Source: Terebella lapidaria (Eukaryota > Annelida > Polychaeta > Terebellida > Terebellidae). From it: 64,000 nt of DNA. The stretch covers positions 4,712,001-4,776,000 of the forward strand of contig OX424560.1 in assembly GCA_949152475.1 (NCBI GenBank), in the 5' to 3' direction. The notes under the pieces were generated by a model. That model searched no databases. It had not been told where the DNA came from and was given only the letters and a program-made list of their open reading frames with translations. The position numbers were made by a program, and so were the translations under genes. This document shows, in pieces, positions 2,960 to 53,715 of this stretch; position 1 is the first letter of the stretch, and every line of letters begins with the position of its first letter.

Positions 2960-3140
2960 CAGAAGCTCTAGAACATAATCCATGATGGACGCATATGCCA
3001 GGGGCGGCAATTACAATTCATCACTGTGACAGACAGTCCAAGGTCTGTTGCTTGACCATCTCACCTTCAGCTCGGGACTTCTCCACCAAATACTCCCTAG
3101 AGTGTAGTGAAAGGGGCGTTATAATGATGTGCTTAGAAGC
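2960..3140 (+). repeat. Short duplicated block, copy 1 of 3
   Basis: The sequence around GACAGACAGTCCAAGG and TTCTCCACCAAAT recurs at 4672-4772 and 16650-16830. Copies 1 and 3 also share a following GGGCGTTATAATGATGTG. No reading frame is shared by all three, so I see no coding signal. Confidence 0.7.
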
Positions 3141-6100: not shown

Positions 6101-7220
6101 AGATCGATATGTATAGACACGAAAGGATATTGATATCTTCAAAATATATATGAGGCGACAAAGTATGGTCATGAATACAGTCACTCGTTCTCGATGCGTC
6201 TGAGAACAGAATCAGAAAAAGCGTAGGAAAAAAATTAGTGAATACCACAAAAGGCACACAATGTCCAAATGCAGAACAAAGGAAGGGGAAATGGGGTGAA
6301 ATTTCTCCTCATTGAAATGGCGACGTCTCGTCATCTGCAGGCAATTACGCCATCCTTTGCAAATATACTGTATAGACGAGTCCGAAACAGGCTCTGACAG
6401 TTCAGCGGTCACCTATAAGCCTAGCAACATTTAATCCAATTCAGTGCCTTAAAAAAACTCTGTGTGTTCAAAATACAAGTTTAGAAGCAGCCATTGCTCA
6501 CTCCCAAATTGCAATGGCTTTTGCTTCGGTTTCATCATGAAATGTGTTGGTTTTCCCATAATAAATCTTTCGGCAGACCAGACGGTTTATCGACCGCAAA
6601 ATTTTCCACGACATCCCACAAACATATTCATGAGCTTGGCATACCTAGTAGTTCAGTCAGTCGTTCATTTTCCGGGCTTGCAATACAAGTCGAACACAGA
6701 AAAACATGCTTTTCTTCAGGTTTTCGATATACATTATAGTTAACTGAATTGCAAAATAACCCAGGAACGCATGCACGACATATTTTGGGTCCTCCGCAAT
6801 TACTCCGTATGCAATAATATCGTCGATTTACACATGCGAGTAGTTCTTAAGCTCATATGGCCGCGAATTCATCAAAACTTTTCCAAACCACATCATCAAA
6901 CGCAAGACATACTACTATAGCAATCGTGCTTTTATATTTTATCTAATATTCCGCGGCAGTTTTCATGGTAAATATGGTATATTTACCTCTGATCACCCAA
7001 TCAGTTATTGGAGCTGTCTGCTCACCACCAGTGTTCACTGATCTCTGTTGCTTTCAATTAAGTTTCGTGTGATCAATTTGTAACATGTTTAAGATGGATG
7101 ACAGCAAAATGCCTGAGATGACATAACACTTGATATAGTATGAACATCCATTTCAACAGTTTGGCAGGAAATTTCTACATTCAGTTACAATATACATGTA
7201 AGCCCGAAATGGAATATTCA
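3140..7220. other. Intergenic stretch between alpha0 and alpha1
   Basis: No gene is supported here. Short open frames (up to about 100 codons) have no recognisable domain and no agreement with other copies. Two duplicated fragments are visible: 4672-4772, a copy of the block at 2960-3140, and about 5760-5880, which matches the start of beta1 near 18440-18520 (shared GTGTGCAT, ATGACTACA and GTTTAGCA words in order). The 5760-5880 fragment suggests an older or partial beta copy upstream. Confidence 0.55.
4672..4772 (+). repeat. Short duplicated block, copy 2 of 3
   Basis: Matches 2960-3110 and 16650-16780 across GACAGACAGTCCAAGG, TGTTGCTTGACC and ACTTCTCCACCAAAT. It is truncated relative to the other copies, which continue about 50 bp further. 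Confidence 0.65.
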
Positions 7221-8145
7221 GATCGTGTACTTTTGGATTTTTTGGATGAATTAATCTGGGTACAGATGTGTTCATTTACACGCAATTCACGAAAATGTGA
7301 AAATGCATCTGAAAAAAATGTACGTTTATGATGTGATCTATTGCCATCGAGAAAACAAAATTTGATGCTACCAGAAGAAAACCTGAAATGATATAATTTC
7401 AAATGGAACAAACTTCACTAAACTGGACTAGACTTTGATATCCAAAACCACACTGGCGCGCGTCATCAGCGGCAGCCAAATCAGCATTTATCGCTGCTTT
7501 TACTTTGGAATCTAGCACTACCCGTCAACCGAATAAAAGAAAGTAAGACAAAACGTGGTGAAAACATAGAGAAAGAGTAAATAAAATGAACAACACATAT
7601 AAAATGTGTTGCATTGTTCTACACCATGTTCTCGGAAGAATTTCTTGGTTCGATCGAAGTTGTAAAACTCCCTAGATCGGTCGTCAACCGTCCATCAAAT
7701 GACCAGCACTCCACTTTTGGGAGAATTTTAGTCTCATTTATAGACCATCAATCAAGTGGACTCGATAATTAATTTTCCATAAAGAAGCGAAACTCCCAAC
7801 TTTGATTTTCAGAATAAAAAGTCATCCAAACTTGGATGATTTCCTCAAATTGGGGGTTTTAGCGGAAGTTGTTGTTTTTTTACGCAACCTATAAATCTTT
7901 ATGTCATTTTGAAGTTGTCCCTAATTGCGAGTCCTTGCCCAGCAATACAGTTAATACAAGTGTGAGTTATCTTGTGTTATGTAAAGATATCTAGAGGAAA
8001 TCAACTTCTTCTTTCATCACCAATCTACTTTGATTACAGCTCTCTCAATAAGTTTATATCACACAACGAAATCCTAAGTAAAGTTGATGAAATTTAGTGC
8101 TGTGTGAGTTGTATTTTTGAGATAATCCCTATTATTGTTGTTGTT

Positions 8146-8220
8146 TTTTTTTTTTTGTTTTTTTTTTGGGGGGGGTGGATGGGGGTCGTATTATGGGGGT
8201 TGTTGTTCGAGGGAGCGGGT
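8146..8220 (+). repeat. T-run followed by G-run
   Basis: A run of mostly T leads directly into an uninterrupted G run and further G-rich DNA. The matching place in alpha2 (about 12735-12767) has a shorter T content and a longer G run, so this is a length-unstable site. Confidence 0.8.
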
Positions 8221-9817
8221 TTCTAGACACTCCATCGTTCAAACTGATGAATGATGCTGTCACAGTTTCCAAACTTATTGATGCTCAAAAATAATTACCC
8301 AAGCGTTTGTCGCTGCACCATGCGTCTGGTGGCTGTCTATAAATATACTTATGTATGTATTACAAATCTTTCTGTGTTCCTAGTATTACTGTTGAAATTT
8401 GTGCATATACGAAAGTATGATACGACATTTTGGTTGCATTCTGTGTGTAATGGGGTCATTTTCAACATATTCATATCTCATAAAATAGCTGAACTTGATT
8501 ATGGACTCAATTAGAAAGCATTTCGTTGGGTATCGATTTGAACTTTATGTCTGCTCTACCTGTTATTCTTATGTATTTAGACAGTATATATTGGAATACC
8601 AGACTGTGATTCCCCAAATGACAATATTCAAATGAAAAGTGGATATGTTCAAAGGGATTATTATTATCTGAAAGCCAGAACCCGAACCCTGGTGAATTAC
8701 TCACTGATGATTCTGTACAGTTAAAAATGGGCATTTTGAAATAATATTGGCTTCAATTGAAATGGATGCAATTCGTGCAATTCATTCACCATGAGGTATC
8801 GCAAATCTAAGGTCTTTTAAAGCTTTTGTTATCTCATAAAGCACATTTTATTTCCCAGCTTGTCATATCTGTGGCCATTTTTTGCCTTCGGTTCCATAAA
8901 ACCTTATTTTATGTGACATTGGCAATCCTGTCTGAAAGTTTTGTGGGTCTAAGAGACCACCCAGTGGATCTGCAGCAGAGCCACATTCCAACCGCTCTTA
9001 GGATGAATTTATCATCCAGAAAATCGGCTTTTTTGAAGTATCAATAAATGATGTGATGAATTCGTTTTCGGACTTATTATCAATAATATCATGAAATATT
9101 TCTCATTTCCTGTTCATAAATATGTCACAGATTATTCTGTCTACCTCGCAGTACACATTGTTGTAAACAAGTCGATAATGCAATTAGAAATCTTCTTGTG
9201 AAACTTCGTACTCAGAATGTTCCACATAATTTTATATTGCCAAATTACAATCCCTGTCCATGAAAGTGGACTAGCTCGTCCACATCGTGTGACATTCCAC
9301 ACTGGAACACGTCCTGACATTTCAGGTCTTTGGAATCTCAAATTGCCGACGCCCATGTGGAAATACCAGGTTGGAGAATCAAATGTCCGACTGAAAATTA
9401 GTACCATATTGGGCACATGTTAGGCTTAAATATGTAGACGAAACGCGGTGAGGAATGCATGCAATAATTATTGCTCGATATTGGAGACTGTATCAATGTT
9501 CCGTATTTCCAAGTAAACTACACTGTGGGCTTGATATTACACAATGGCTATGATATCGTTGTTACGTTGGCAACATTGGCGTATATGTTGCTGCAAAAAT
9601 ATACTATTTGTGGTAGATAAAATTGTTCCCATAAAGGACGATTCTTGTCGTTCATTGATTATTCTTTAAATGGTCATAATTGCGTAATCTCAATTACCAG
9701 TAATAATATGAGATGCTATATCATTACACAGCAGTGTACCCGGTATTGAATTCATATAAGAAACAATTCTGGCGTTCAAACGGATCTACAAATGTGGTAT
9801 CCTGGTTTACTTCATAA

Positions 9818-11166
9818 CACCCTGCAACAAATCTTAAGTCGGTGACCGACCTATTTCTTTTGTCTAGGGGTCAGGTCATGTTATTGTCACCGACTTGAGC
9901 TAAGATTTTTCGGACGAAACCTCGACACTCCGTAAGAAAAATTCAATTTCTGCAATATGAGGCATACATACAGTAACTGTGGGGGATAATACGATGCCCA
10001 AAATACCACTGCCCATTTATGCACTTCACAAATGTTAGTAACAATTGATATTCTTTAGAAATAAGGTTTCTTCCGCCGATATTTACCCACATTTTGACAC
10101 GGTGATGAAAATCATCGTCATTTTCAAGAACTTCTGGACATTGTATTCCAATAATCTTCACATGGGAGTCAAGATAATCATCTCATGTTTTATATATCCT
10201 GTCCATGTGCAAATATATTGTAATTTTTTTTTGTTATTCCTAAATTACTCCACATGCTTGTCGTGTCACCGATTTGAGTCAAGCGTCACCGACTTAGGTA
10301 TACATTTTTTTAGAGTATAACATACCCATTCTTTGAGTGAGTTCAAGTGTACAATGTGTTCTTTCGGTTATAGCGATGTCATATTCCTGGTATCGTGGTC
10401 CGTACGTAGTAATATATTGTGTAGTATACATCCCGACAACATTTCGTAAGAATGAGTTATTGATATAATTGTTTTTGGAGGCTGCAGCATTGTGACTGGG
10501 ACCACAGTATGAATTGCTGTTGCTCATTTTCCAATTATGATTTCGAGCATAACTATGGAAAGAAATTAATATGAACATTTGCATTATGATGTTGGATTAC
10601 AACCGTTGATTGAAAAACGGTGGTGGCTACTGCTTTTTACGTTTTTTTCTTGGAGAGATACCAGTCCTTTTCTGGAAAACTAACATCTTAAGTCGGTGAC
10701 GCTTGACTCAAGTCGGTGACACGACAAGCATGTGGAGTAATTTAGGAATAATTGAAAAATTACAACATATTTGTGCATATGCATGAGATATGTGAAACCT
10801 GATATGATTATCGTAACTCCCGTGTAGGGGTTATTGAAGTACAATGTCCGGAAGTTTTTGAAATGACGATGAATGTGATCACCATGTCAAAATTGGGGTA
10901 ACTATCGGCGGAAGAAACCTTAATTCTGGGGAATATCAACCGCTACTAACATTTGTTAATTACATGAACGGTCAGTAGTATCTCGGACATCGTATCATCC
11001 CCCTCAGTTACTCTATATATGCATCAAATTGCAGAAATTGAATTTTTCTTAGCGTGTGTCTATGTTCTGTTAAAAACTTCTGAGCTCAAATCGGTGACAA
11101 TAACATGACCTGACCCCTAGACAAAAGAACTAGGTCAGTCACCGACTTAAGATATGCTGCAGGGTG
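9818..11166. mobile_element. Foldback DNA element with eight 11-mer sites
   Basis: The ends are CACCCTGC at 9818 and its reverse complement ending at 11166. Outer inverted arms (9818-9915 and 11072-11166) are followed by inner arms (about 9934-10300 and 10690-11045), leaving a loop of about 390 bp. ATAA flanks both sides (9814-9817, 11167-11170), and alpha2 has a single ATAA in the empty site near 15860. AAGTCGGTGAC or a one-base variant occurs at 9836, 9886, 10265, 10285, 10690, 10710, 11088 and 11138, in inverted orientation in the two arms, as expected of transposase-binding subterminal repeats. The open frame in the loop (10294-10584, minus) has no recognisable domain. It is non-autonomous; the superfamily is unknown. 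Confidence 0.85.
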
Positions 11167-11340
11167 ATAACGTATCTATTTCATTATATAGACGTTTCCT
11201 TTGCGATTGTGAAAACAAAGCTAGTTGTATTTCTAATATCCAAATGCGACGTTTACAAATGTGGTTGACAATTCTGTGGGTCACGAATGTTTGTATCACC
11301 TGATTCTCAAGTTATCATGACTTTCGTGTGCTGATGTCAG

Positions 11341-11494
11341 TGGTCCCTGGCCGTATTTTTGTTTCTGCGCCTTTCACGGAGCGCCAAGGACATCCTGGTA
11401 TTTGTCTTCCATGTCAGGAAATGCAATCACATGTGCTTCTACCCACCTGGGAATTGGGCATTCTGGTTCAAGTTTCGCTTCCTGTGCACAGACG
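11341..11494 (+). pseudogene. Decayed cysteine-rich exon remnant (GCC2/GCC3-like), alpha1
   Basis: It follows a plausible acceptor, CTGATGTCAG, ending at 11340. One frame reads GRIFVSAPFTERQGHPGIC followed by LPCQ. After a frame change near 11415 another frame reads CASTHLGIGHSGSSFASC. Together the order is Gly-x-Phe, Gln-Gly, Cys-x-x-Cys, then Cys-x-(S/T), Gly-Ser-Ser-Phe, Cys, which is how GCC2/GCC3 repeats are laid out. A shift inside such a short exon and the lack of a donor at the end mean it is not functional. It could still be chance, as the match is by eye only. Confidence 0.3.
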
Positions 11495-11587
11495 CTCATG
11501 TCACCAGCAGCTTTCACTTTATTTGACCCACAACTGATCAAGGGGTTCATGCAGTGTAACGCTCATGTTACCACCAACTTGCATTTA

Positions 11588-11680
11588 ATTGACTCATGGT
11601 TGATGACGCCAGTTTGGTTATGGCTGTGAACATTCGTTCGGGTTTGGTTTTTATTCCAAACACTTGGTCGTCGTACAGTC
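11588..11680 (+). repeat. Dispersed short repeat, alpha1 copy
   Basis: Shares the words TGATGACGCCAGT and CGGGTTTGGTTT with the other members of the dispersed family listed at 2200-2290. It is shorter than the gamma copies. Confidence 0.45.
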
Positions 11681-12746
11681 ACTTCTATTGGTAATGTGAG
11701 CCCAGGACCTATGTATTCTTTTACCGCCTACATCTTCGACTTTTCAATGTGAATGATTTTAACTCTATTTGAGCACTAATTGAAACAATATTTTGACAGC
11801 ATTACACTGTTGTGTAATGTTTTTTTTCTTCAGATGGATGACTTTTGGATATTTTGTATGAATTAGTCTGGGCACAGATGTGCTCATTCACACGCAGTTC
11901 ACGAAAATATGAAAATGCATTTGATAAAAATGTAGGCTTATGATTTGATCTATTGCCACCGATAAAATGAAATTTGATGCTACCAGAAGAAAACCTGAAA
12001 TGATATAATTGTGATTCCCAATGGGGAAAAAAACTTGACTAAACCGGACTAGACTTTGATATCTACAACCACAATGGCGCGCGTCATCAGCAGCAGCTAG
12101 TTTAGGAAATATCGCTGTTTTTATTTTGGAATCTAGCACTGCCCATCAACCGAAAAAAAGAAAATAAGACCAAACGTGGTGAAAATATGGAGACATAAAC
12201 TGTGTTGTGTTGTTCTACAATAGAGTCTTGGAAGAATTCATTAGTTCGATCGAAGTTGTAAAACTTCTTAAAACGGTCGTCAACCGTCCATGGAATGACC
12301 AGCACTCCACTTTTGGGAGAATTTCAGTCTTATTTATAGACTATCAATCAAGTGGACTCGTTCATTAATTTTCCATAAATGAGCGAAATTCCCAACTTTG
12401 ATTTTCAGAATAAGAAGTCATTTGGATTATTTCCTCAAAGTGGGGGTTATAGCGTAAATTTATTGTATTTTTACGCAGCCTATAAATGTTTATGTCATTT
12501 TGAAGTTGTCCCTAATTGGGACTCCCGAGTCCTCGCCCAACAATAGAGCTGACACAAATGTGAGATATCGAGTGTTATGTGAAGATATCTAGAGGCGATC
12601 AACTTGTTCTTTCATCACCAATCTACTTTGATTATGGATGTTTTCACATCACATCACACAACGAAATCTTAAGTCAAGTTGGTGAAATCTAGTGCTAAAT
12701 GAGTTGTATTTTTGGCACAATCCCTATTGTTGGGGTTTTTTGGTGC

Positions 12747-12767
12747 AGGGCGGGGGGGGGGGGGGTT
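12747..12767 (+). repeat. Poly-G tract
   Basis: An almost pure G run in alpha2 at the position of the T/G tract of alpha1. It is likely to vary in length and to cause sequencing errors. Confidence 0.85.
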
Positions 12768-13446
12768 GCAGCACTCTAGACACCCCATCGTTCAAAATGA
12801 TGAATGATGCTGTCACAGTTTCTAAACTTATTGATACTTAAAAATAATTACCCAAGCATTTGTCGCTGCACTATGCGCCTGGTGGCTGTCTGTAAATATA
12901 CTTATGCATGAATTACAAATCCTTCTATCTAGTATTCTAGTGTTCCTAGTATTACTGTTTAAACTATACGAAAGTATGTTACGACATTTTGGTTGCATCC
13001 TATGCGTAATGGAGTCATTTTCAACATATTCAATCTCATAAAATTGTTGAACTTGAATATGGACTTAATTTTTCAGTCAATTAGAAAGCATTTCGTTGGG
13101 TATCGATTTGAACTTTATGTCTGCTCTATCTGTTATTCTTATGTATTTAGACAGTAGATACTGGGATACCAAACTCTGGTTCCCCAAATGACAATATTAA
13201 AATGAAAAGCGGATATTATCAAAGGGATTATTATTATCCGAAAGCTAGAATGCGAACCCTGATGAATTACTCACTTTAGACGATTCCGTACAGTTAAAAA
13301 TGGGCTTTTTGAAATAATATTGGCTTCAATTGAAATGGATGCAATTCATTCACCACGAGGTATGGCAAATCTAAGGTCTTTTAAAGCTTTTGTTATCTCA
13401 TAAAGCACATTTTATTTCCCGGCTTGTCATATCTGTGGCCATTTTT

Positions 13447-14929
13447 AGGTTACCGGACCTTTGGTCCGATAACCTATTGCCGTGGCGTTGCGTCCGTCGT
13501 CCGTTGTCCGTCCGTCGTCCGTTCACATTTTTATCTTTAAAGTTTTCGGTGGAATCTTTGTGAAATTTTGCACAAAAATACCTAAAAATATTTCAAGGAA
13601 AGTATTTTTTTAGTTTTTCGATTTTCGCATTTTTTTTTAAATGGCGGCCGTTTTCGACGAAAAGTGCCTGATTTTGGACATTGGCGGCCATTTTCTCAAA
13701 AACTGTTCAGTAACTTTTTTTCTTTTTGATACACAACACTCCTCATATGTACTTCTGTGATGTGTATAAGTTTCGTTGCGCTTGAATCGCTCGAAGTGGG
13801 CCATTTTGGGCCAAACTTGGCCCAAATGGGACTTTCCCATGTTAAATTCTCCTATGCTTTATAATGGGACACATTATGCCTTATATCTCACTTAATATTG
13901 AGATTAGAGACTAGGAATCAATGGTGGACATATAGGAAACGATATATGCTGATAATTTTTGTGACCTTGAATTTGACCTCTGACCTCAGTTTCAAGGTCA
14001 AAGAACAAAATGGCTAATATCTCGCTTATTATTGACTTTACAGCTTAGAAATCAATTGTGGACATATAGGAAATGATATATGCCGAATATTCTGATGACC
14101 GCGAATTTGACCTTTGACCTCATTCTCAAGGTCACAGGACAAAATGGCTAATATCTCACTTCTTATCGAGTTTACAGCTTAGGAATCAATAATGAACATA
14201 TAGGAAATGATATATGCAGATTATTGTCATGACCATGAATTTGACATTTGACCTCATTTTCAAGGTCACGGGACAAAATGGATAATATCTCACTTATTAT
14301 CGATCTCACAGCTTAGGGATCAATTGTGGACATGTAGGAAATGATATATGCTGAATATTCACGTGACCTTGAGTTTGACCTCTGACCTCATTTTCAAGGT
14401 CACGGGACAAAATGGCTAATATCTCACTTATTATCGACTTTACAGCTTAGGGATCAATTGTGGACATATAGGAAAGGATATACACTAAATATTCTTATGA
14501 CCTTAAATTTGACCTTTGACTTTATTTCGAAGGTCATAGCACAAAATGGCTAATATTTCGCTTATTATCAACTTTACAGCTTAGGAATCAATCGTGGACT
14601 TATAGGAAATGATATATCCATAATATTCTTGTGACTTTGAATTTGCCTTTTGGCCTCATTTTCAAGGTCAGAGCGCAAAATGAGTAATATCTCTTTTATC
14701 AACTTTACAGCTTAGGAATCAATTGTGGACATATAGAAAATGATATATGCAGAATATTCTCGTGACATTGAATTTGGCCTTTGACCTCATTTTCAAGATA
14801 GGAAATGATATATGGTGAATATTCTCACGACTTTGAATTGACCAATGACCTTGTTTTTCAGGTCACCAGACAAAAGGCTAAGATCTAAAATATATATTGT
14901 CCGGTAACCTTTCTTAGCCCTTGGGCTGA
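13447..14929 (-). mobile_element. Helentron-associated (HINE/pearl-like) element
   Basis: It interrupts an oligo-T site: alpha1 has six T at 8877-8883, whereas here five T lie on each side. AGGTTACCGGAC forms the left end (13447-13458), and its reverse complement lies just inside the right end (14899-14910). Short hairpins, GGACCTTTGGTCC at 13455-13467 and AGCCCTTGGGCT at 14916-14927, sit at the two ends. A CGTCCGTCGTCC-rich segment at 13487-13521 is followed by a tandem core. This combination (T-rich target, subterminal inverted repeat, end hairpin, microsatellite-like segment, tandem core) is known from HINE/DINE and mollusc pearl elements, which are Helentron relatives. Strand is given by the hairpin nearest the terminus and is uncertain. 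No Rep/helicase gene is present, so it is non-autonomous. Confidence 0.65.
13880..14890 (+). repeat. 134-bp tandem core of the Helentron-like element
   Basis: Units start with CTAATATCTC at about 14014, 14148, 14282 and 14416, giving a 134-bp period. Further units are at about 14546 and 14686, with a degenerate first unit near 13881 and a truncated last one near 14800-14870. Each unit contains GACCT half-sites and GGACATATAGGAAA. About 7.5 units are present, with 5-15% divergence between neighbours. Confidence 0.9.
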
Positions 14930-16033
14930 TTTTTGCCTTCGGTTCCATAAAACCTTATTTTATGTGACATTGGCAATCCTGTTTTGTTGGTCTAAGAGAC
15001 CACCCAGTGGATCTGCAGCAGAGCCACATTCCGACCTCTACTTTAGGATGAATTTATCCTTGAAAAATTCGCCGTTTTGAGGTATCAATAAATGATGTGA
15101 TGAATTCGCTTTCGGTCATATTATCAATAATATCAAGAAATATTGCTCATTTGCTGTTCATAAATATGTCACAGTTTATTCTGTCTACATCGCTCTTCAC
15201 ATTGTTGTAAACATGTCGATAATGCAATTAGAATCTTGTTATGTAATTTCGCCCTCAGGATGTTCCTCATGTATACTTTTGTATAGCCAAATTACAATCC
15301 CTGTCCATGTAAGTGGACTACATCGTCTACATCGTGTGACATTCCACGTTTGAACACGTCCTGACATTTCAGGTCTTTGGAATGTCAAATGACCTACGCC
15401 CATGTGGAAATACCAGGTTGGAGAATCAAATGTCCGACAGCAAATTAGTACCATATTGGGCACATGTTAGGCTTGAATATGTAGACGAAACGCGGTAAGG
15501 AATGCATGCAATGATTATTGCTCGATATTGGAGACTGTATCAAAGTTCCGTATTTCCAAGTAAACTACACCGTGGGCTTGATATTACACAATGGATATGA
15601 CATCGTTGGGACGTTGGCCACATTGGCGTATATGTTGCTGCAAAAAATATACTATTTGTGGTAGATAAAACTGTTCCCATGCAGGACGATTCTTCTCGTT
15701 CATTGATTATTCTTTAAATGGTCATAATTGCGTAATCTCAATTACCTGTATTAATATAAGATGCTATATCATTACACAGCAGTGTACCCGGTTTTGAATT
15801 CATATAAGAAACAATTCTGGCGTTCAAACGGATCTACAAATGTGGTATCCTGGTGTCCTGTATAACGTTTCTATCCATTCTATAGACGTTTCCTTTGCGA
15901 TTGTGAAAACAAAACTATCTTTATTTCTAATATCCAAATGTGACGTTTACAAATGTGGTTGACAATTCTGTGGGTCACGAATGTTTGTATCACCTGATTC
16001 TCAAATTATCATGACTTTCGTGTGCTGATGTCT

Positions 16034-16183
16034 GTGGCCCCTGGCCGTATTTATGTTTCTGCGCCTTTTACGGAGCGCCAAGGACATCCTGGTATTTGGC
16101 TTCCATGTCAGGAAATGCAATCACATGTGCTTCTACCCACCTGGGAATTGGGCATTCTGGGTTTCGCTTCCTGTGCACAGACG
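16034..16183 (+). pseudogene. Decayed cysteine-rich exon remnant (GCC2/GCC3-like), alpha2
   Basis: Reads GRIYVSAPFTERQGHPGIW, with the first Cys of the CLPC motif changed to Trp, and then changes frame as alpha1 does. A small deletion also removes part of the Gly-Ser-Ser stretch, and the acceptor AG of alpha1 is TG here. It is further decayed than alpha1. Confidence 0.27.
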
Positions 16184-16226
16184 GGGCGTATAACGCTCAT
16201 GTTACCAACAACTTGGACTTTATTTG

Positions 16227-16345
16227 ACTCATAGTTGATGACGCCAGTTTGGTTATGGCTGTGAACATTCGGTCTGGTTTGGTCCCAACATTTGTATTTT
16301 AAGTTTATTATTGTCATCATAAAAATCTGGTTGTATCGGGTTGAT
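16227..16345 (+). repeat. Dispersed short repeat, alpha2 copy
   Basis: Member of the family at 2200-2290, sharing TGATGACGCCAGT and the ATTATTGTCATCAT segment. It is longer than the alpha1 copy, which shows the two alpha units differ here by a deletion. Confidence 0.5.
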
Positions 16346-16649
16346 GCACTTGTTTTCTTCGTCATTCTATGTCTCGTTGTACTTCTATTGGTAATGTGAG
16401 CCCAGGGCCTTTGTATTCTTTTACGGCCTACATTTCGACTTTTCAATGTGGATGATTTGAACACTAATTGAAACATTATTTTGACAGCATTACATTGTTG
16501 TGAATAATGATATAAAATACAATATCAATGAGAATATACCCTCGATGTTTTCAACGAATGTACTCAATAATAAAAAAAGGTTTCTTGTGATATGTCGCTT
16601 ATTGTGTCCACGTTTCCCAATGACCGCCATGATTGCGCCAATTCGGAAG

Positions 16650-16830
16650 CACTAGAACATAATCCTCGATGAACAGCGATGCCGGGGGCGGTAATTACAA
16701 TTTATCACTCTGACAGACAGTCCAATGCCTGTTGCTTGACTGTCTCAACCCGAACTCTGGACTTCTCCACCAAATATTCCTTGTAGTATTGTGAGACGGG
16801 CGTTATAATGATGTGTGTAACTGGTGTAAG
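16650..16830 (+). repeat. Short duplicated block, copy 3 of 3
   Basis: Matches 2960-3140 over its full length and 4672-4772 over about 100 bp. No coding signal. Confidence 0.7.
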
Positions 16831-18430
16831 TCTAAACTCGCATAGATCCAATGATATCGACATTGGCAGTGCTTCATCGTCATGTGGCAAAATAGAGCAT
16901 GTTGGGTTTAGATATATTCATATCGGCTAGAGAGGTATGTTCCCATCATAGAACTGTTATAGATATTCCATATTCTGTTGAAAATTACTTAACTTTTAAT
17001 TTCTTGCACTTGTTTTTGTTTGTTTGTTTCGCTTAGTATCAAGGTTTCTCTGTAAAAATCAATGAGAACATTGAACATCCAATCTCTTGAGCTGTAGTCA
17101 ACTTCTATCGTGCCTGGATCATAGCCCATAACAATACCAATTTTGTTTGACGTTATTTTCTAGCACAAATGAGTCATTATTCTATATACATCAAAAGTTT
17201 ACCTCCGGATAGTTCAAACGTAGAGTACGTGTAACATTTTATCTCTAATTATGTACTCATGAAAGGGATAAATATGTGCGCTATAATGACACAAGTGCAG
17301 TTATAAAAGGTGCTAACACAGTCATCAGTCTCCAGTCAAACCCAAATGTCACTTCAGCAGAGGAGAACATGTCGTTGCGCTTCCGTTGTTGGCGATCCAT
17401 CCATCAAGTCCGGGCATCTCTTTGAGGTTGCTGCTGCGCGCTGTGTGTATATTCAATATGCTAGGGTTGGGAACAAAACTGCCAAATAGTGCATTCCCAA
17501 TCTGAAACATTAATCTGGAGAGACTGTAATTTCGGAAACCATAAAATTCCTGTGTTTGCTGCATTAACACTCAGCATAAATCACTGACCCGTCTACGGCT
17601 ATTTGTCCGGGCTGACGCCCGCTGGGCCAACTACACATGCCCGTGCGTTCTTTTTTAAAAAATATTGTTGAGTTTGTTCATGTAATCACAGAATCTGGTA
17701 CTTCATCTCATATGATGTCGTCATCAGAGCTGCTCATGAGGAGAATGTTACATTTGTATCTTGAACCCGCTAGTGTCCTGTTAGTGTCGTATTGCTCACA
17801 TATCACACCTTCTGGTCGATTGCATAAATTCTATTGCCCAAGCAGTCTCTGTTTCACTGTTCAACCTAGATGCATGGTATGTTTTTGTGTACAATGTCCT
17901 CAACACCCCCCCCCCCACCCCCCCCCCCACCCCACAATTATTTTCGAAGCAATTTCAGACATTTTTGCAATCACTACTCATTCATTATACGACGTTAGCT
18001 TGCATTTTTGGGCAAACTTCAGTTGAAACTGATCGAAAAGGAATTGCATGGGTTGTACTTCCACAACAATTACAAGAATCACTCCAATAATCGACGTTTT
18101 TTTTTTATAAAAGTGAGTTATCGTTGTGGTGTAATAAGCATACTGTATAGTGGTGTTCAGTTCACTTGCTTTTATGTTAGAACACCGTGTTCAAGCACAC
18201 CAATTAAATATATTTTGTAAAACAAACTAACAACAAAGGTTGCCATCTTTTAGTAACAACAATACAAGAATCAGTCTAATTTTGTAACAAACATCGTATT
18301 TTGGATGTGTTTCATGCTATGAACTAGATGCCATGTATTGAAATAAGCAGATGTGTAAACTGTGTATTGCAAAAAAAAATTGGTGTTTCAATTTTCATAT
18401 AATAGTACAAGGTATTTGAACAGCCGGGTT
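16830..18430. other. Spacer between alpha2 and beta1
   Basis: No gene is supported. It holds a GC-richer patch with a small hairpin (GGGCTGACGCCC near 17609-17620), a C-rich run at 17905-17933 and a T-run near 18098-18107. Open frames of up to 129 codons here are low-complexity or lack any recognisable domain. Confidence 0.5.
17905..17933 (+). repeat. Poly-C tract with interspersed A
   Basis: Almost uninterrupted C with two single A positions. It makes two overlapping reading frames appear open as poly-proline, which is not evidence of a gene. Confidence 0.85.
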
Positions 18431-20920: not shown

Positions 20921-23900
20921 TTACGGGACCGAACCCAGGCCCTGGTACTCCCGAAGGATGCGAGATCTCATGGAAGCAGTGAAGCTGGTGATAGTACGTT
21001 TGTTTTTCATATCCACTTGAATCTCATTCCAGATTTTGGGTCCATTGCAAAGTATGCTATTATAAGCAGTAGCTGTACGTGGCTGATACGGTCTAATATG
21101 ACCTTGTTGTCTTGTGACGTAAGAGTGACAAATGTCATTGTAAGCAAATTTATTTGACAATGAGGCGGGCAGTGAGTTGTTAGTGTACTTGAACATCACT
21201 TTGCTGAGTTCGATGCGATATATATCTTGAAGTTTTAGGGTGTTCAGTTCGATAAAAAGGGGTTGTGACGGGGCGTGACTTGGACGGTTTAGTATTGAGC
21301 GCAGGATTTTTTTCTGTGCAATGAGCAAGCCATTGATATATTTCTGGAAAGTTGAACCCCACAAAGCTATACCATACTGTAGATGCGGGTAAACAAGCGC
21401 ATAGTACATACATTTTAGAGTATCAATGGGAAGTAGGTTTTTTACTTTATTTATTACAAAGCGTGCACTCGTTAACTTACCACGACAGGCATCAATATGT
21501 TCTTTCCATGTTAAATTGTCGTCAAGATGGATTCCAAGAAATTTGAATGTGTTGGCGCGATTTATTACATCACTCAATATTTGCAGATTTAAATTAGTGT
21601 CCAGTTTGGTAACCTTCTTGGAAAAGAACATGTAATTGGATTTGGAAACGTTGAGCGAGAGTTTGTTGGCGTTAAACCAATCGCTTAATATGAGTAGATC
21701 ATCGTTCATTATTCGGAACATGTCAGGTATGTTTTTGCCAGATAAATATATGGTGGTGTCGTCCGCAAACTGGAGGGCTTTGCAATTATGCATACAATTT
21801 GGTAGGTCGTTTACATATATTATGAATAATAAGGGGCCCAGCACCGATCCCTGTGGGACACCACATATCATATTGCGCATATGTGACGCGTTGCCTTGAT
21901 ACGTAACAAATTGTTGGCGGCTAGATAGGTATGATGTAAACCATGATAGAGGGATACCACGGATCCCATAATATTCTAGTTTCTTCAGAAGAATGGAATG
22001 ATCAATAGTGTCGAATGCTTTGCTCAGGTCAAGGAAAACACTGAGTACGGAGTCTTTTGCTTCTAATGAATGTATAGTGTCAATGTTAAATTCAGTTACT
22101 GCATCTATTGTGGATCGGTGACTGCGAAAGCCAAACTGACTGTTGCTCAGAAGATTATTATGATCTAAAAAAGCATAAGTACGTTTATGTACAATTTTTT
22201 CAAGAATTTTAGAGATGGATGGTAACAGTGATATAGGCCTATAGTTTGAAAAACTGGTTTTCGATTTAGATTTGTAGATAGGGATGATTTTAGCTAGTTT
22301 CTGATTCTGGGGCACTATTCCTTCTGAGAGTGATTTATTTATTAATATAGAGAGTGGGACGGCTATTTCATTGCATATCTGTTTAAGAAACCTCGGACTC
22401 AGGTTGTCATGACCACAGCTCTTCTTTGGTTTGGAGGAGTTGATAATGCGGATGATTTCATTTGGATTTGTAGGATTCATAAACAGGGAATTAGGGTTCG
22501 CTTGATAGTGACGAGAAAGGTACTCTGTTGCGCTATGATTAGGCGATGGAATCGCATTTGCGTAGGTGGGTCCAATATCAGTGAAGAAGTCACAAAAATG
22601 ATTTGCTATGTGTAAGGGGTTGTCTATTGTGCCGTTATTGTGTTGAAATGAGGATGATATTGTTGACTTAATGCTAGATTTACCAATCAGTGAATTTATT
22701 ACTTTCCATGTTTCTTTAGTGTCGTTTTTATTTGCCGTTAATATCTTAGCGTAATGACTACGCTTTGCTGCGTTTTTCACCCTATTATATAAGTTACGAT
22801 ATGTTACATAGTCAGTCCACAAGGGGTCGGTGCTGGGCTTCCCAAGACCTTGTTTGTATAATTTATTACAATGAATAGATGAATTCAAAAGACCTGTGCT
22901 CATCCATTCCTCTCGAATGACGAACTTACTTTTAATTTTAATATCCCTTTCGGGGGCGTATATATCAATAATGCCATTTATTCGATTATAAAAGGCATCA
23001 AAAGCATCTTGAGTGTTCAACCTTTCTAAGAAGCACCAGTCGGTGTCTCGAATATCAGAAGCGATGAGCTTCATTGCGTTTTGTGACATTGGTCTGTGCC
23101 TGAATTGGAGATCTTTGGAGTGTAATTTCCTAGTTTTTTTTCCAACAAAGCAAAACACAGGCAGATGGTCTGAGAGGTCACTATAAACAATACCAGAATA
23201 CATATTACTTGTATTTTGCATTACATATATGTTATCAATCAGTGTTGCTGTACTGTGGGTAATTCGTGTCGGTTTGGTAATGGTCGGTAAGGCATTTGCG
23301 GCAAAGAATGTTTCCAGTAGTTCGGCAGTATATTTTTGTGTTTCAAATTTTAGGAAATCAAAATTTTGATCGGTACCTATGATAACAGGTATGTTCGTAT
23401 TGTGTAATTTATCCAGAATGTGAGCATATCGTTCCACCGAGACATTTGGATTCGTATTGGGGACTCGATATATTTCACCGACAACAGCGGAAATATCACG
23501 GTCAGATATATCGATAAATAAACTTTCAAATTCACCTTCCACAAAAGTAGAGAGCTCTTCACGTAGTGTAAAATTTAGCGATTCACGTACTTAGATAGCC
23601 ACGCCTCCCCGAGACATATTTTGGCGATTCTTACAAACGAGCTTGTACCCAGGTATAGTATATAAATGCATATTATGATCAGTGAGGAATGTCTCGCATA
23701 ACAATATACAATCCATGATCACATTTTCTGATTGCAAATGTGTTAAGAATATTCTAAGTTTTTCATATTTGGAAGCCAGTCCCTGTATATTGATATGCAA
23801 TACCTTTATTTTATAATCAGAGGCTTTACGCTCCTGAGAGTTTATATTTCTTGGCTCAACATATTGTGAATCGATGGACATCGATTGGAGGGGGTTAAGC

Positions 23901-23995
23901 CCAATGTCCTTCTCGTATACATACATTTCATATATGCGATTGAAATCCAAGTCTGCGTTCGTGGGATCAGTAGTCAAATTCATTGAAGCCATCAT
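20921..23995 (-). pseudogene. LINE ORF2: endonuclease-reverse transcriptase, one stop
   Basis: About 1,024 codons from the ATG at 23995 (MMASMNL; I chose it because the frame upstream lacks a better ATG) to TAA at 20921-20923. The single interruption is TAA at 23591-23593, in ...SRGGVAI-stop-VRESLNF; related elements have an aromatic residue there, so this is probably a Tyr codon changed by one base. Endonuclease motifs in order: HINIQG (about 23790), LLCETFL (23690), EIYRVPN (23460), GTDQNFD (23370), SDHLP (23170). Reverse transcriptase motifs: NYRPISLLPS (22230), DLSKAFDTIDH (22010), VPQGSVLGP (21850), FADD (21758-21769), KSNYMFF, FLGIHLDD. The C-terminal part lacks a clear RNase H domain. 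ORF2 nicks the target and reverse transcribes the element RNA. The long frame beginning at 23542 starts with GTG and is only the part after the stop. Confidence 0.93.
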
Positions 23996-24652
23996 GACGT
24001 TATGGGGGAAAGTAGTCAAACAGAATCCTACCTGCCATAGACCGAGCACCCACCGGAGATGCACCAACACCCGAGACCGTCACCAACACGCCTACTACCG
24101 GCCATGGGGCTGCCCCCAGGTCCACCGACGCCTCCTGGTCACATTGATAACGCCTCGCCGACGTGGAGAAAACTGAAACAGGAACATAAATAGGGTAAAA
24201 ACAAATACAAGAGAACATGGTAAGGTGATTATACATAGTGATGTGATATACGACTCTAGGCTCATTAAATTTTAAATATTATGTACAAAACAATATTTGA
24301 CGTTAAGAAGACAGTACATATATTTTGTTCACAACGTGGTATGTTGAGAAATCTATGATTTAAGGTACAAATTAATGCGTGTAACATCAGAAAAGCTTCA
24401 GAACAACACAAGTAATCATTGCACGTGGCGATTTTTTCGATATCAGACAAAAGAGTGTGTAACATAATATTACTTATATATATATGGTTGCGGAATGATA
24501 GTCAGTCACAACGTAGTAAACTGTGAGTTGAGCGTGTACATGTAGGCCTATGCATGCAGACGGTATGTCAAAGCATTTACACATGTAGGGCTGTAATGTA
24601 TAAATTCTAGACATATACTTATCAGGATTGGCTTTTAATGATAGATTCGAAA
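23996..24652 (-). other. Inter-ORF spacer of the LINE
   Basis: No conserved frame. The part next to ORF2 (about 24000-24140) is GC-rich on both strands and holds short overlapping open frames without domains; the remainder is AT-rich. A spacer of this length is unusual for a two-ORF LINE. Confidence 0.6.
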
Positions 24653-25840
24653 TTACTTATCTTGCTGGTAAGCATCGGCACACAGCTTTTGGACATGCTG
24701 GAAGCGTCGCCTCCCGATGTGTTCGAAGTCAGGTCTGCACGTCCGTGTTGCGACAAAGAGTGCGTCTGTAATCGACTTCGCCTGCATGTCCTTCAGCAGT
24801 TCCATCCCGACGCCGTAATCCATGTCCGAGTCGAAATTTTCCAGCACCCCGCCGCGTGGACAGTTGATACGGTAGGCATAGATCACGTGTGTGGAGGATG
24901 CCACCTCTGGTCTCTGCAGCAGCGTGTTCAGCGATGCGCGGACGTCGTCCAGCGAGCTGACCTTCGTGGCGTATCCCGTGAAAGTGCTTCCACTGTCCTC
25001 GGTCGTTCCACCTTCCATCACTAGTCGGTCCTCTGTGCCAGATGTCAGAGTGTCAGGTAGGGTGGGAGCCAAGAACTGTCGCTGGAGGGAGCCGTTGATA
25101 TACAGATGGTCGTCTTGTAGTTTGACTTTTAGTTCCTTATCCTTTCTCTGTTCCTTGAATGTTGGGAAGACAAATTGCTTGCGCTCTCGCTTGGCCGGTG
25201 GCAGCTGTTTTGTGACGGAGTGATTTGTGTCTTTCAGTATTTTTGCCTTGCTTATTACCAAATCCAGTTCTATTGCGTTCGGTAGCTTGACGAGCATTGA
25301 GCTTGGTCCTCCGTTCGGGTTCGGACCCAGGCGATGTGCGACAGGGATGTAGAATTTGTCAGCAGGTTGGATATTCATTACTTCTTTGAAGAATTTTTTT
25401 GCCACGGCTACAGAGTTTTCATCTTCTTTTTCTTTGTATGTTTTGGACGATTTATCGAAATTGATGATGATGTTGTACTTCATCGTGTGGGTCTTTAATT
25501 CTATTAATTCATTTTGTAGCTTGATGTTTAATGATTCAGCTCGAACAACTCGTCCGCTCAGGGTGGCGACAGTACGTTTCAATGTCGTCATATCTGATGA
25601 CAGATCATCAATGGCTGTGGTGAAGTCGTTCCCCTGCGATTCGAGTTCACTTGTCCTTTTTTCAATGGCGTCAGTACGTTCCATCAAACGTGCGAGCGTG
25701 GCCTTCATACTGTCTCTGATAGATGTAATAGCGTCCCACAATTCAGGGGAGACCCCTTCAGGTGCATCTAGGGCCTCCTTAGAGCTGCTGTTCGATGTAG
25801 GCTCGTTTTTCTGCCGTTGGCTTCTATTGCCGTGACCCAT
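24653..25840 (-). CDS. LINE ORF1: coiled-coil, RRM-type RNA-binding protein
   Basis: An intact 395-codon frame from ATG at 25840 to TAA at 24653-24655. Residues 1-30 are polar and Ser/Lys-rich. Residues about 33-118 have heptad-like spacing and should form a coiled coil. Residues about 119-215 (KYNIIINF ... PVAHRLGP ... ILKDTNHS) have the layout of the RRM of L1-type ORF1 proteins, followed by a basic stretch (KRERKQFVF ... KEQRKDKELKVKL, 217-241). The C-terminal 130 residues have no recognised domain and contain two paired Cys regions without a CCHC knuckle. By family knowledge ORF1 proteins trimerise and coat the element RNA. It is followed by a spacer of about 0.66 kb before ORF2, so ORF2 must be translated by some internal or reinitiation route. 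Confidence 0.85.
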   Translation of the reverse strand: MGHGNRSQRQKNEPTSNSSSKEALDAPEGVSPELWDAITSIRDSMKATLARLMERTDAIEKRTSELESQGNDFTTAIDDLSSDMTTLKRTVATLSGRVVRAESLNIKLQNELIELKTHTMKYNIIINFDKSSKTYKEKEDENSVAVAKKFFKEVMNIQPADKFYIPVAHRLGPNPNGGPSSMLVKLPNAIELDLVISKAKILKDTNHSVTKQLPPAKRERKQFVFPTFKEQRKDKELKVKLQDDHLYINGSLQRQFLAPTLPDTLTSGTEDRLVMEGGTTEDSGSTFTGYATKVSSLDDVRASLNTLLQRPEVASSTHVIYAYRINCPRGGVLENFDSDMDYGVGMELLKDMQAKSITDALFVATRTCRPDFEHIGRRRFQHVQKLCADAYQQDK

Positions 25841-25956
25841 TTTGTAGTGTGTTGTTCACACGTTCACAAGTAGTATGTTTTAACAAGTTCGTAAGATTCT
25901 CTACGGTTGATTGATCGAACTGTGATGTCGGGTGTATGAAGCTTGACCCAATCGTA
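25841..25956 (-). promoter_or_regulatory. Presumed LINE 5' UTR
   Basis: About 116 bp between the candidate target-site duplication and the ORF1 start. Full-length LINEs carry an internal promoter here. No motif is recognised, and the boundary depends on the weak 7-bp duplication. Confidence 0.4.
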
Positions 25957-49945: not shown

Positions 49946-50426
49946 GATCCTTGACAGAAATTTTGCTTCCATTCTGAGTGTGGTGGATACTGTTTTGTAC
50001 CGTGACAGAATTCCTAGCCGGCCCTTACACTCCTCCCGTGTCTGTGGTAGTCCTGGCAACAAGCATAATAAATTACTCAGCGTGTGGAGCTTAAAGCAAT
50101 TAGTAGATTGGAATTATGATTACAATTACGAGCGAAATTTATCCCTTATTTTACATGGTCTGTGGGATCTACAAGTAGATTCTCTACTGCCTCGACTGAT
50201 GTTATTTTAATACTTTGCCACCAGCACCAATACCATATTTTACCGTGATTTATTACAACATACGCAAAACAACACTCTTGCGCAAAAGACCTGGCATTGT
50301 TACTCCTGATACCCCAGATACAAACCCTTTGTTTGCTCATGCAAGGACCATGTGAGGTATTTGTTGCATAGGGAATCTACGGTGGCTCATTACCGCCAAT
50401 TACGTTCGTGTATTTCTCACCCCATT

Positions 50427-51230
50427 TATAATTATCACCTCACAATTTTCACCCCGTTTATAATTTCCACCCCGTTCATAATTATCACCTCACAATTTTC
50501 ACCCCGTTTATAATTTACACCTCGTTCATAATTATCACCTCACAATTTTCACCCCGTTTATAATTTCCACCCCGTTCATAATTATCACCTCACAATTTTC
50601 ACCCCGTTTATAATTTCCACCCCGTTCATAATTATCACCTCACAATTTTCACCCCGTTTATAATTTACACCCCATTCATAATTATCACCTCACAATTTTC
50701 ACCCCGTTTATAATTTCCACCCCGTTCATAATTATCACCTCACAATTTTCACCCCGTTTATAATTTCCACCCCGTTCATAATTATCACCTCAGAATTATC
50801 ACCGCGTTTATAATTTCCACCCCGTTCATAATTATCACCTCAGAATTATCACCGTGTTTATAATTTCCACCCCGTTCATAATTATCACCTCACAATTTTC
50901 ACCCCGTTTATAATTTCCACCCCGTTCATAATTATCACCTCAGAATTATCACCGCGTTTACAATTTCCACCCCGTTCATAATTATCACCTCACAATTTTC
51001 ACCCCATTTATAATTTCCACCCCGTTCATAATTATCACCTCACAATTTTCACCCCGTTTATAATTTACACCCCGTTCATAATTATCACCTCACAATTTTC
51101 ACCCCGTTTATAATTTACACCCCATTCATAATTATCACCTCAGAATTATCACCGCGTTTATAATTTCCACCCCGTTTATAATTTACACCCCGTTCATAAT
51201 TATCACCTCAGAGTTATCACCGCGTTTATA
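50427..51230 (+). repeat. Left arm: 16 x 50-bp tandem array
   Basis: ATTATCACCTCA recurs every 50 bp from 50431 (50481, 50531 and so on) through about 51205. Most units contain CACAATTTTCACCCCG; a minority variant CAGAATTATCACCGCG is found mainly in the inner units. The unit is built of three related 15-18 bp modules, each with TATAATT or AATT followed by a CACC word. Confidence 0.95.
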
Positions 51231-51315
51231 ATTATGATTTGATCACAATCATTACTAGGTACAGAATTTCAATTGGTGCATTGAGTCTTAGTATGAACAC
51301 TCTTGGTATTCTGTG

Positions 51316-51838
51316 TACCGTATTGACGCGCATATAAGGACATGTCCTCATATATGAGCACTTCCTTATATCCGGACATACGAACATGACCTTATATGAG
51401 AACTTTATTTAGAAACTGCCTGTAAAACATCTGACCCACATATAAGGACATTTTGCATGTCGATGATTATAAGTTGTGAAAAACACAACACATGTAGCAC
51501 GTACCACTACGTATACCATGTTCAGCATATTAATCTCGAATATTCTTGTGGTCTTGAAATTAAATTGTATTCATGTTGAATGTATGTGTTATTGACCTGC
51601 AGGGAATTGTGTGTCATTCAAAGGGACAAAACTAATTGCGCCAATAATTTAATTAGGGCCCAATTCTTCAGCTTATAGTAGTGCATATAGTGTCCTTATA
51701 TATGAATGAACGGGGTGTTTTATGTCTGGATAAAAGGCCGTCTCCTTATAAGTGAACATGTTTTGAATTTTCGATATATTGTGAAAATGCACAAATCCAC
51801 AAATAAGGACCTGTCCTTATATGCGATTCAATACGGTA
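51316..51838. mobile_element. Nested 523-bp inverted-repeat element in the loop
   Basis: TACCGTATTGACGCGCATAT at 51316 is mirrored at 51838 with two or three differences over about 35 bp, including ATAAGGACA and GTCCT. The word CTTATA or TATAAG recurs at least six more times inside. Flanks show no clear target-site duplication. It may be an independent MITE that landed in the loop, or the original core of the foldback. Confidence 0.65.
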
Positions 51839-51892
51839 GCTATAGAGGCGTTTCCATAAGCATCTTGTTGCTCTTGGGCTGCATATGTTCAT

Positions 51893-52870
51893 GAAGTGAG
51901 GTGATAATTATAGATGGGGTGGATATTTTGAACTCGGTGAATATTGTGAGGTGATAATTATAGATGGGGTGGATATTTTAAACTCGGTGAATATTGTGAG
52001 GTGATAATTATAGACGGGGTCAAAATTATGAACGCGGTGATAATTCTGAGGTGGTAATTATAGATGGGGTGGATATTATTAACTCGGTGAATATTGTGAG
52101 GTGATAATTATAGATGGGGTGGATATTTTAAACTCGGTGAATATTGTGAGGTGATAATTATAGACGGGGTCAAAATTATGAACGCGGTGATAATTCTGAG
52201 GTGGTAATTATAGATGGGGTGGATATTATAAACGCGGTGAATATTGTGAGGTGATAATTATAGATGGGGTGGATATTTTAAACTCGGTGAATATTGTGAG
52301 GTGATAATTATAGACGGGGTGGAAATTATGAACGCGGTGATAATTCTGAGGTGGTAACTATAGATGGGGTGGATATTATAAACTCGGTGAATATTGTGAG
52401 GTGATAATTATAGATGGGGTGGAAATTATGAACGCGGTGAATATTGTGAGGTGATAATTATAGATGGGGTGGATATTATAAACGCGGTGAATATTGTGAG
52501 GTGATAATTATAGATGGGGTGGATATTTTAAACTCGGTGAATATTGTGAGGTGATAATTATAGATGGGGTGGATATTTTAAACTCGGTGAATATTGTGAG
52601 GTGATAATTATAGATGGGGTGGATATTATAAACGCGGTGAATATTGTGAGGTGATAATTATAGATGGGGTGGATATTATAAACGCGGTGAATATTGTGAG
52701 GTGATAATTATAGATGGGGTGGATATTATAAACTCAGTGAATATTGTGAGGTGATAATTATAGATGGGGTGGAAATTATGAACGCGGTGAATATTGTGAG
52801 GTGATAATTATAGATGGGGTGGATATTATAAACGCGGTGAATATTGTGAGGTGATAATTATAGACGGGGT
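51893..52870 (-). repeat. Right arm: 20 x 50-bp tandem array
   Basis: GTGATAATTATAGA recurs every 50 bp from 51901 to 52851. Most units read GGGGTGGATATT and GCGGTGAATATT, the reverse-complement equivalents of left-arm positions that differ by a few fixed substitutions. A minority variant has GATAATTCTGAGGTGGTAA. Confidence 0.95.
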
Positions 52871-53715
52871 GAGAAATGCACGAATATAATTGGCGGTAAT
52901 AAGCCACCGTAGGAATCGGGTTCCCATTCGTTACTGCCTATATGTACATGTGATACACTCTAAAGGCCTGATCTGAACAGTAAAGCTTTACAAAAGGTAG
53001 AGCGAAAGACCACAAGCAACGGCTCTCCAGTTTCTCTCATGATCTCTCGGTAAGTTTGCTTTGACATCTGCGATATGATAGGCAGTGACAATGTCACTCA
53101 CGTCACTTGAGGGCTCTGAATAAGCCTTCAGGGTATACCAAGAACAATCCAGACAACCCGTGTAGATTTGTGACATGGGCTCGTGACACATATTTTATCC
53201 AGTGTAAATATTTCTAAAATTTAACAGATTTTAAATACACAGTGATATAAGGATAACATCTTCACATTATCATACCGCTTCGAAGATTGTTCAAAATGAG
53301 ATTGATATTTCAAAGATTGTTCAATCATGAGATTGTTCAAAGGCATAGCATGGACTGTACACAAACTTTACATATTTATGTGCTCGGGAGTTCAAAACAA
53401 ACAGCAAGTATAATCGGAATTAGCCTATATAAATGTTCGGAAATGTTACAAGTTGAATCCCGTTAGTTCAGCCTCCAATGAGTGTATACAAATTGTATAT
53501 ACTTGGACAATATACTAGAATATTAGAAAAATATTCTAATTGTGAACTGATTCCATATTTGAGAGTTCAATTTGTTTCATAATTCATGGCACCCTGGGGA
53601 AACCCGTGTAAAACTAGACAACAAAAAGCCTCAATCATATTGATGTTCATATTTTTGAAAGGAACTGAGGGAATATATCACGGGCAAAAGAAAACAAGCA
53701 CAAATTCAGAGATTG

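What the first reader, a model, noticed from the sequence alone, without database searches (positions are those of the whole stretch)
50378..52911. Foldback element whose two arms are opposed 50-bp satellites
Seen directly: exact 6-bp duplication GGAATC, terminal inverted repeats of about 60 bp, 16 units on the left and 20 inverted units on the right, and a 0.67-kb loop. Three sister gamma copies show the empty site. FB (Drosophila) and TU (sea urchin) are the known analogues, but the 6-bp duplication, the 50-bp period and the TACGGTGGCT ends match neither as I know them. This is the best candidate for an undescribed element family.
Basis: partly seen in the sequence, partly recalled or inferred. 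Interest (0 to 1): 0.82.

Follow-up and report, generated by a model that had tools for sequence, protein, structure and literature searches.

The report
Foldback transposon of the IS3EU superfamily

Summary
At 50378-52911 lies a 2,534-bp element with TACGG..CCGTA ends, an exact 6-bp duplication (GGAATC), opposed 50-bp arrays (15.4 and 19.5 units) and a 0.66-kb loop. Two paralogous stretches of the window read through the site with a single GGATTC. In the host assembly (761.6 Mb, unnamed) it is a high-copy family: of 30 distinct complete copies read, 21 have an exact 6-bp duplication and 4 more have one mismatch. The loop keeps its length (630-707 bp); the arms change mostly in whole 50-bp units. 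It is not of an unknown kind: TA..TA ends with 6-bp duplications are published for IS3EU. The genome also holds two sister families with TACGGYGGCT ends and 6-bp duplications, whose arms are different 20-bp satellites. Long members of 10.3, 11.2 and 14.2 kb carry uninterrupted integrase-like transposase frames (Pfam PF24764; nearest NCBIfam profile IS481, below cut-off); a 15.5-kb one lacks it. I read the window element as a non-autonomous IS3EU foldback, moved in trans by such a transposase. No coding copy with exactly the window family's ends was found. A foldback branch of IS3EU with its own satellite in each family appears undescribed: a new variant of a known kind.

The parts
50372..50377 (.). 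[quoted passage not shown]
   Evidence: sequence; single GGATTC at two paralogous empty sites
50378..50411 (+). left terminus (TACGGTGGCT...), outside the array
   Evidence: 186 exact genomic matches of its first 25 bases
50412..51235 (+). left arm: 50-bp tandem array, 15.4 copies at 50412-51183, then part-units up to the loop
51236..51895 (+). loop (664 bp by the anchors, which end at 51899)
   Evidence: 93-98% identical to the 39 other genomic copies scored
51896..52871 (-). right arm: 50-bp tandem array in opposite orientation, 19.5 copies
52872..52911 (-). right terminus, inverted copy of the left with a variant (TACGGTGGCTTATTACC...)
   Evidence: 56 exact genomic matches of its 30-mer
52912..52917 (.). 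[quoted passage not shown]

Best explanation
A non-autonomous, cut-and-paste DNA transposon of the IS3EU (IS3EU/GingerRoot) type in foldback form. An integrase-like DDE transposase made by a related element binds the TACGGYGGCT ends, cuts the element out and joins it to staggered cuts 6 bp apart; gap repair leaves the 6-bp duplication. The arms are satellite arrays that grow and shrink mostly by whole units between copies, probably by slippage, unequal exchange or template switching during repair. Loop and termini stay fixed. Shown here: the family, the ends, the duplications, the empty site, the unit-wise arm variation, and transposase-bearing members of sister families with the same kind of ends. 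Inferred: cut-and-paste, mobilisation in trans by that transposase, and the way the arms grow.
For: Exact 6-bp duplication in 21 of 30 distinct complete copies of this family and one mismatch in 4; cross-pairing different elements (all 39 tested) gives 1 exact match in 1,482. TA..TA / TAYGG..CCRTA ends and 6-bp duplications as published for IS3EU. Sister family 2 (TACGGCGGCTCATTACTGCC ends, 18 of 20 bases shared; arms of a 20-bp GC-rich unit): exact duplications in 9 of 9 copies under 3 kb and 2 of 3 long copies read, not at L063; the 14.2-kb copy on C17 holds a 396-codon open frame, PF24764 at 121.5 bits. Sister family 3 (TACGGTGGCTGATATATGCC ends; mostly arms of a 20-bp AT-rich unit): exact duplication in 6 of 6 copies checked, among them a 10.3- and an 11.2-kb one, each with a 421-codon open frame. 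The best NCBIfam match of both proteins is IS481 transposase (35.3 and 20.3 bits, cut-off 224), a bacterial relative named for this group. In 28 copies the loop is 630-707 bp, while 15 of 28 left arms have a length of 40 and 19 of 28 right arms of 12 bp modulo 50.
Against: No coding copy with exactly the window family's ends was found: of 102 plus-strand ends that I could list (100 of the 186 places, all 56, and those shown, both strands together), 38 paired; the longest copy is 7.1 kb, and the 3.5 kb of it that I read hold no match to the C17 transposase. The ends match family 2 over about 20 bp and family 3 over about 10; beyond 20 bp the match is no better than shuffles (91 and 123 of 500 for the two ends of family 2, 201 of 500 for family 3). 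The transposase was not placed in a tree with IS3EU reference proteins. Five of 30 copies have 2 to 6 mismatches in the duplication (L010, L018, L029, L049, L053); L010 shows GGAACC on both sides if a damaged right end is allowed for.
Confidence: 0.85

Rival explanations
1. A non-autonomous hAT6 element: hAT transposons that make 6-bp duplications, here with foldback arms.
For: hAT6 families with 6-bp duplications exist (PMC12730594 passage).
Against: The IS3EU ends (TA..TA, TAYGG) fit; members of the sister families with the same kind of ends carry an integrase-like transposase, and no hAT family reached E 0.1 in the frames scanned of the C17 element.
Confidence: 0.04
2. A degenerate Polinton/Maverick or similar element: long repetitive inverted repeats, 6-bp duplication, integrase.
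For: Polintons make 6-bp duplications, and the longest family-2 members are 14-15 kb, one of them with an integrase core.
Against: No DNA polymerase, ATPase, protease or capsid family at E<=0.1 in the frames scanned of the C17 element; the protein matches PF24764 far better than rve, and IS481 best among NCBIfam models. Not scanned: L086 (array plus 0.5 kb) and the end pieces L067 and L068.
Confidence: 0.02
3. A Mutator-type foldback (FB, Tm1, Tetris) or a P-type one (Galileo).
For: Same architecture: inverted repeats built of tandem units, variable unit number, non-coding derivatives.
Against: Their duplications are 8-10 bp (Tm1, Tetris) or 7 bp (Galileo), here 6 bp; no MULE or P transposase in the frames scanned of the C17 element.
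Confidence: 0.03
4. A satellite hairpin made by DNA repair (inverted duplication) and spread by recombination, not by transposition.
For: The arms are satellite arrays and vary in unit number; 5 of 30 copies lack a good duplication.
Against: Fixed ends, exact 6-bp duplications in 21 of 30 copies, and an empty site in paralogues.
Confidence: 0.02

Closest known systems
IS3EU / GingerRoot superfamily (PMC10045372: abstract, section 3.3 and passages seen; PMC12730594: passages seen)
   Same: TA..TA ends, TAYGG..CCRTA in fungal families, 6-bp duplications, DDE transposase related to IS481/IS3 with its first catalytic D 100-300 residues in.
   Different: The passages that I saw mention inverted repeats, not satellite arms or foldback forms. 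The Repbase entries themselves were not available.
Galileo (P superfamily, Drosophila; PMC3573991, passages seen)
   Same: Long, internally repetitive inverted repeats that change in length; some copies with non-matching flanks.
   Different: 7-bp duplication and P-type transposase.
Tm1 (Mutator/foldback, root-knot nematodes; PMC3169594, passages seen) and Tetris (D. virilis; PMC4079207, abstract and one section seen)
   Same: Foldback inverted repeats with tandem units (about 14 bp; about 220 bp); Tetris units built satellite arrays; a single coding Tm1-A element among other copies.
   Different: 8-10 bp duplications, assigned to Mutator (suggested for Tetris).
Styx (IS3EU-like, Zymoseptoria; PMC10853768, passages seen)
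   Same: Transposase of common origin with IS3EU; new insertions with 6-bp duplications observed.
   Different: A 7.9-kb coding element of a fungus; no satellite arms in the passages seen.
Satellites that resemble IS3EU: CgiSat35 and CgiSat47 of the Pacific oyster (PMC8268682, table passage seen) and half of TCAST10 of the flour beetle (PMC5844308, passages seen)
   Same: A link between tandem repeats and IS3EU sequence has been recorded before.
   Different: Longer units (690 and 129 bp are listed for the oyster satellites); no foldback element with these ends is described in the passages seen.
FB (Drosophila) and TU (sea urchin)
   Same: Foldback architecture (recalled).
   Different: Longer duplications, 9 and 8 bp (recalled, not from a call).

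Membership tests
IS3EU/GingerRoot | TA..TA termini (TAYGG..CCRTA) | tested here: met
   TACGG..CCGTA at both ends of the window element; the same in the other complete copies with few exceptions (altered right ends in L010/L054 and L040)
IS3EU/GingerRoot | 6-bp target site duplication | tested here: met
   21 of 30 exact, 4 of 30 with one mismatch; sister families 11 of 13 (L063 and the 5.2-kb C16 copy fail) and 6 of 6
IS3EU/GingerRoot | integrase-like DDE transposase encoded by the autonomous element | tested here: inconclusive
   Present in members of sister families 2 and 3 (PF24764, invariant D142, D201, E243); no coding copy with exactly the window family's ends found
IS3EU/GingerRoot | transposase groups with IS3EU/GingerRoot in a tree | not testable with these tools
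   No IS3EU reference proteins in the libraries; indirect support from a sub-threshold IS481 profile match
hAT6 | hAT transposase | tested here: not met
   No hAT family at E<=0.1 in the frames scanned of the C17 coding element, a sister and not the window family itself
Polinton/Maverick | protein-primed DNA polymerase B and virion-type genes | tested here: not met
   None at E<=0.1 in the same frames; L086, L067 and L068 not scanned
Mutator-type foldback (Tm1, Tetris) | 8-10 bp duplication | tested here: not met
   Duplication is 6 bp
P-type foldback (Galileo) | 7-bp duplication | tested here: not met
   Duplication is 6 bp

The most novel reading that the evidence does not exclude
In this host a whole branch of IS3EU transposons is built on satellite arms as a working part of the ends: each family grows its own repeat unit just inside the same kind of TACGGYGGCT terminus, in coding and non-coding members alike, so the arrays serve transposition (for example as repeated transposase-binding sites or through hairpin formation) and the branch keeps producing new dispersed satellites.
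Probability: 0.35. Interest if true: 0.75.

Novelty: new variant of a known kind. Interest (0 to 1): 0.56.

Why it matters
Most foldback elements are said to belong to Mutator, with exceptions such as P-type Galileo. A foldback branch in IS3EU, an integrase-type superfamily, would show that satellite-armed ends arise again under a different transposase. Three families in one genome, two of them with coding members, would make it possible to test what the arrays do and how transposons give birth to satellites.

Tried and rejected
Polinton, hAT6, Mutator and P assignments were considered and set aside (see rivals). Dada was read about because it makes 6-7 bp duplications (PMC3706591 passages) and dropped: it sits in small RNA genes, and the Dada-U6 and Dada-U1 families described there lack terminal inverted repeats. 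A literature search for the end sequence gave 135 papers; the 40 listed are unrelated by title. I looked for homology between the ends of families 1, 2 and 3 beyond 20 bp and between their repeat units, and dropped it because shuffles do as well. A family-1 end 242 bp from a transposase homologue on C4 faces away from that gene, which thus lies outside the copy. Two longer family-1 copies (3.5 and 4.1 kb, L062 and L061) hold inserted sequence; one search lists no transposase match there, and I ran no family search on the inserts. The 7.1-kb copy on C1 was read over 3.5 kb and holds tandem repeats. In the 15.5-kb C6 sister of the C17 element, about 4 kb of other sequence, with a weak tyrosine-recombinase match, stands where C17 has its transposase.

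Full report
What is there. The window element spans 50378-52911 and is flanked by an exact GGAATC on both sides. The outer 34-40 bp at each end are a terminus outside the arrays, beginning TACGGTGGCT. Inside lie two arrays of a 50-bp unit in opposite orientation, 15.4 and 19.5 copies, which pair as an 813-nt inverted repeat at 85%. The middle is a 664-bp loop; the window's list of frames of 95 codons or more has none in it. Joined flanks align across the junction to two other places in the window, each with a single GGATTC, the second for only 9 bp beyond the junction, so the element is an insertion.

A family in the genome. The window lies in an unnamed 761.6-Mb assembly of 438 contigs. The first 25 bases of the left end have 186 exact matches and none for the pattern read backwards; the 30-base right-end variant has 56 and none. 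The loop gave 615 first-look candidates, of which the best 40 were scored, all at 93% identity or more. From the loci fetched, 39 distinct stretches bounded by both ends were extracted. Of these, 30 are of the window family, the window copy (L031) included; L018 is counted here on its left end although it lacks the loop marker. 21 of 30 have an exact 6-bp duplication, 4 have one mismatch, and 5 have 2 to 6 mismatches (L010, L018, L029, L049, L053). L010 shows GGAACC on both sides if a damaged right end is allowed for. The other nine are L063, L064 and seven copies of family 2; L063 and L064 (a diverged relative of the window family) show no duplication. Cross-pairing different elements gave 1 exact match in 1,482. 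The fetched copies were the best-scoring ones, so they lean towards young copies.

Arms change by units. In the 28 of 29 oriented copies whose loop anchors were found (L061, with an insert in the loop, failed), the loop is 630-707 bp, median 673. Left arms run from 140 to 1,274 bp (2,072 in L062, which has a nested insert) and right arms from 112 to 1,112 bp. 15 of 28 left arms have a length of 40 modulo 50 and 19 of 28 right arms of 12 modulo 50, and left and right lengths are nearly independent (r = 0.20). Divergence of the loops from their majority sequence is 1.7-4.0%, median 2.75% (28 loops). One search replaces, where two copies were also read in the wrong orientation.

Sister families with other satellites. 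A search for ends with a similar start but a different continuation gave 83 places against 4 for the pattern read backwards, mostly a second family ending TACGGCGGCTCATTACTGCC. Its arms are a 20-bp GC-rich unit. Of the copies that I chose to read, nine of nine under 3 kb and two of three long ones have exact 6-bp duplications; the 5.2-kb C16 copy and L063 do not. Two of the nine, L073 and L076, have reverse-complementary flanks and may not be independent. A third family ends TACGGTGGCTGATATATGCC, with 372 exact matches. Its arms are a 20-bp AT-rich, nearly palindromic unit, though one short copy, L096, shows no such array. Six of six copies checked have exact duplications. Beyond 20 bp the ends of the families match no better than shuffles (91, 123 and 201 of 500), and their repeat units show no detectable kinship (118, 152 and 991 of 1,000 shuffles reach the observed match).

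The transposase. The 14.2-kb family-2 copy on C17 (exact TAATAT on both sides) contains a 396-codon open frame, 387 from the first ATG. It matches Pfam PF24764 'integrase core domain' at 121.5 bits (cut-off 26) and rve at 27.4 (below its cut-off). The 10.3-kb family-3 copy on C1 (exact CTATGG on both sides) contains a 421-codon frame, 399 from ATG, matching PF24764 at 123.1 bits; an 11.2-kb copy on C2 (ACAGAC) has a 421-codon frame too, with an extra end inside it. The C17 and C1 proteins are 51% identical and share D142, D201 and E243 (spacing 58 and 41, counted by me). The best NCBIfam match of both is IS481 transposase, 35.3 and 20.3 bits against a cut-off of 224; one chance-level match to folE also appeared. 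The genome gave 108 match places for the C17 protein and 133 for PF24764; the 14 control genomes, whose nature is not stated in the answer, gave none. A third relative on C4, with one stop, also lies beside a tandem array. The C6 sister of the C17 element, 98-99% identical where both were read, lacks the transposase in the pieces read. The scanned frames of the C17 element hold no other Pfam family at E<=0.1.

Placing it. [quoted passage not shown] fungal ones end TAYGG..CCRTA (PMC12730594). In the tree of PMC10045372, IS3EU/GingerRoot was not separated from IS481EU, which is close to bacterial IS481, although without strong support. An IS3EU-like element, Styx, makes new insertions with 6-bp duplications in a fungus (PMC10853768). 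The window element meets the end and duplication features. The coding feature is met by members of its sister families, not by a copy with exactly its own ends. The tree could not be made. It works like Galileo, Tm1 and Tetris but is not a member of their superfamilies, because the duplication length differs.

What is in print. 35 papers of the library hold 'IS3EU'. One of them also holds 'foldback', in a cited title; none holds 'fold-back'. Links between satellites and IS3EU have been recorded: two oyster satellites are labelled IS3EU in a table of PMC8268682, and half of a beetle repeat resembles IS3EU-1_TC (PMC5844308). I found no description of foldback IS3EU elements; Repbase and Dfam entries were not searchable here, and subscription journals are mostly missing from the library.

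Limits. The host species is not identified. Counts from the genome tool are lower bounds. How the arms grow, and whether they help transposition, is inference.

Noticed in passing
20921-25855, minus strand: A non-LTR retrotransposon by eye: a 400-aa frame and a reverse-transcriptase-like frame (889 and 162 aa, separated by one stop). No family search was run on it.
   Followed up: no
13876-14797: Tandem array of a 134-bp unit, 6.9 copies. A unit of the same period, similar by eye, recurs inside the 7.1-kb family-1 copy on C1 (L091 1-310).
   Followed up: no
2900-17000 and 34000-63000: Many duplicated blocks with spacings of about 4.6 to 16 kb, apparently paralogues; two such relatives give the empty site of the element.
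   Followed up: partly
L089 2250-3605, minus strand (C1:52948750-52950105): A 452-aa open frame inside the 10.3-kb coding family-3 element that looks HECT-ligase-like by eye, but no Pfam or NCBIfam family matches it (one chance-level Pfam row). It could be a second gene of the element.
   Followed up: partly
L092 1310-1984, minus strand (C6): In the C6 sister of the C17 element, about 4 kb of other sequence with a weak tyrosine-recombinase match (E 0.041) stands where C17 has its transposase.
   Followed up: partly
L069 and L070 (C16:22771500-22777000): A 5.2-kb family-2 copy without a 6-bp duplication whose two flanks are, by eye, inverted copies of each other over about 22 bp, perhaps a foldback-driven rearrangement.
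   Followed up: no
L073 and L076 (C1 and C15): Two family-2 copies on different chromosomes have flanks that are reverse complements of each other, suggesting insertion in, or duplication with, another repeat.
   Followed up: no
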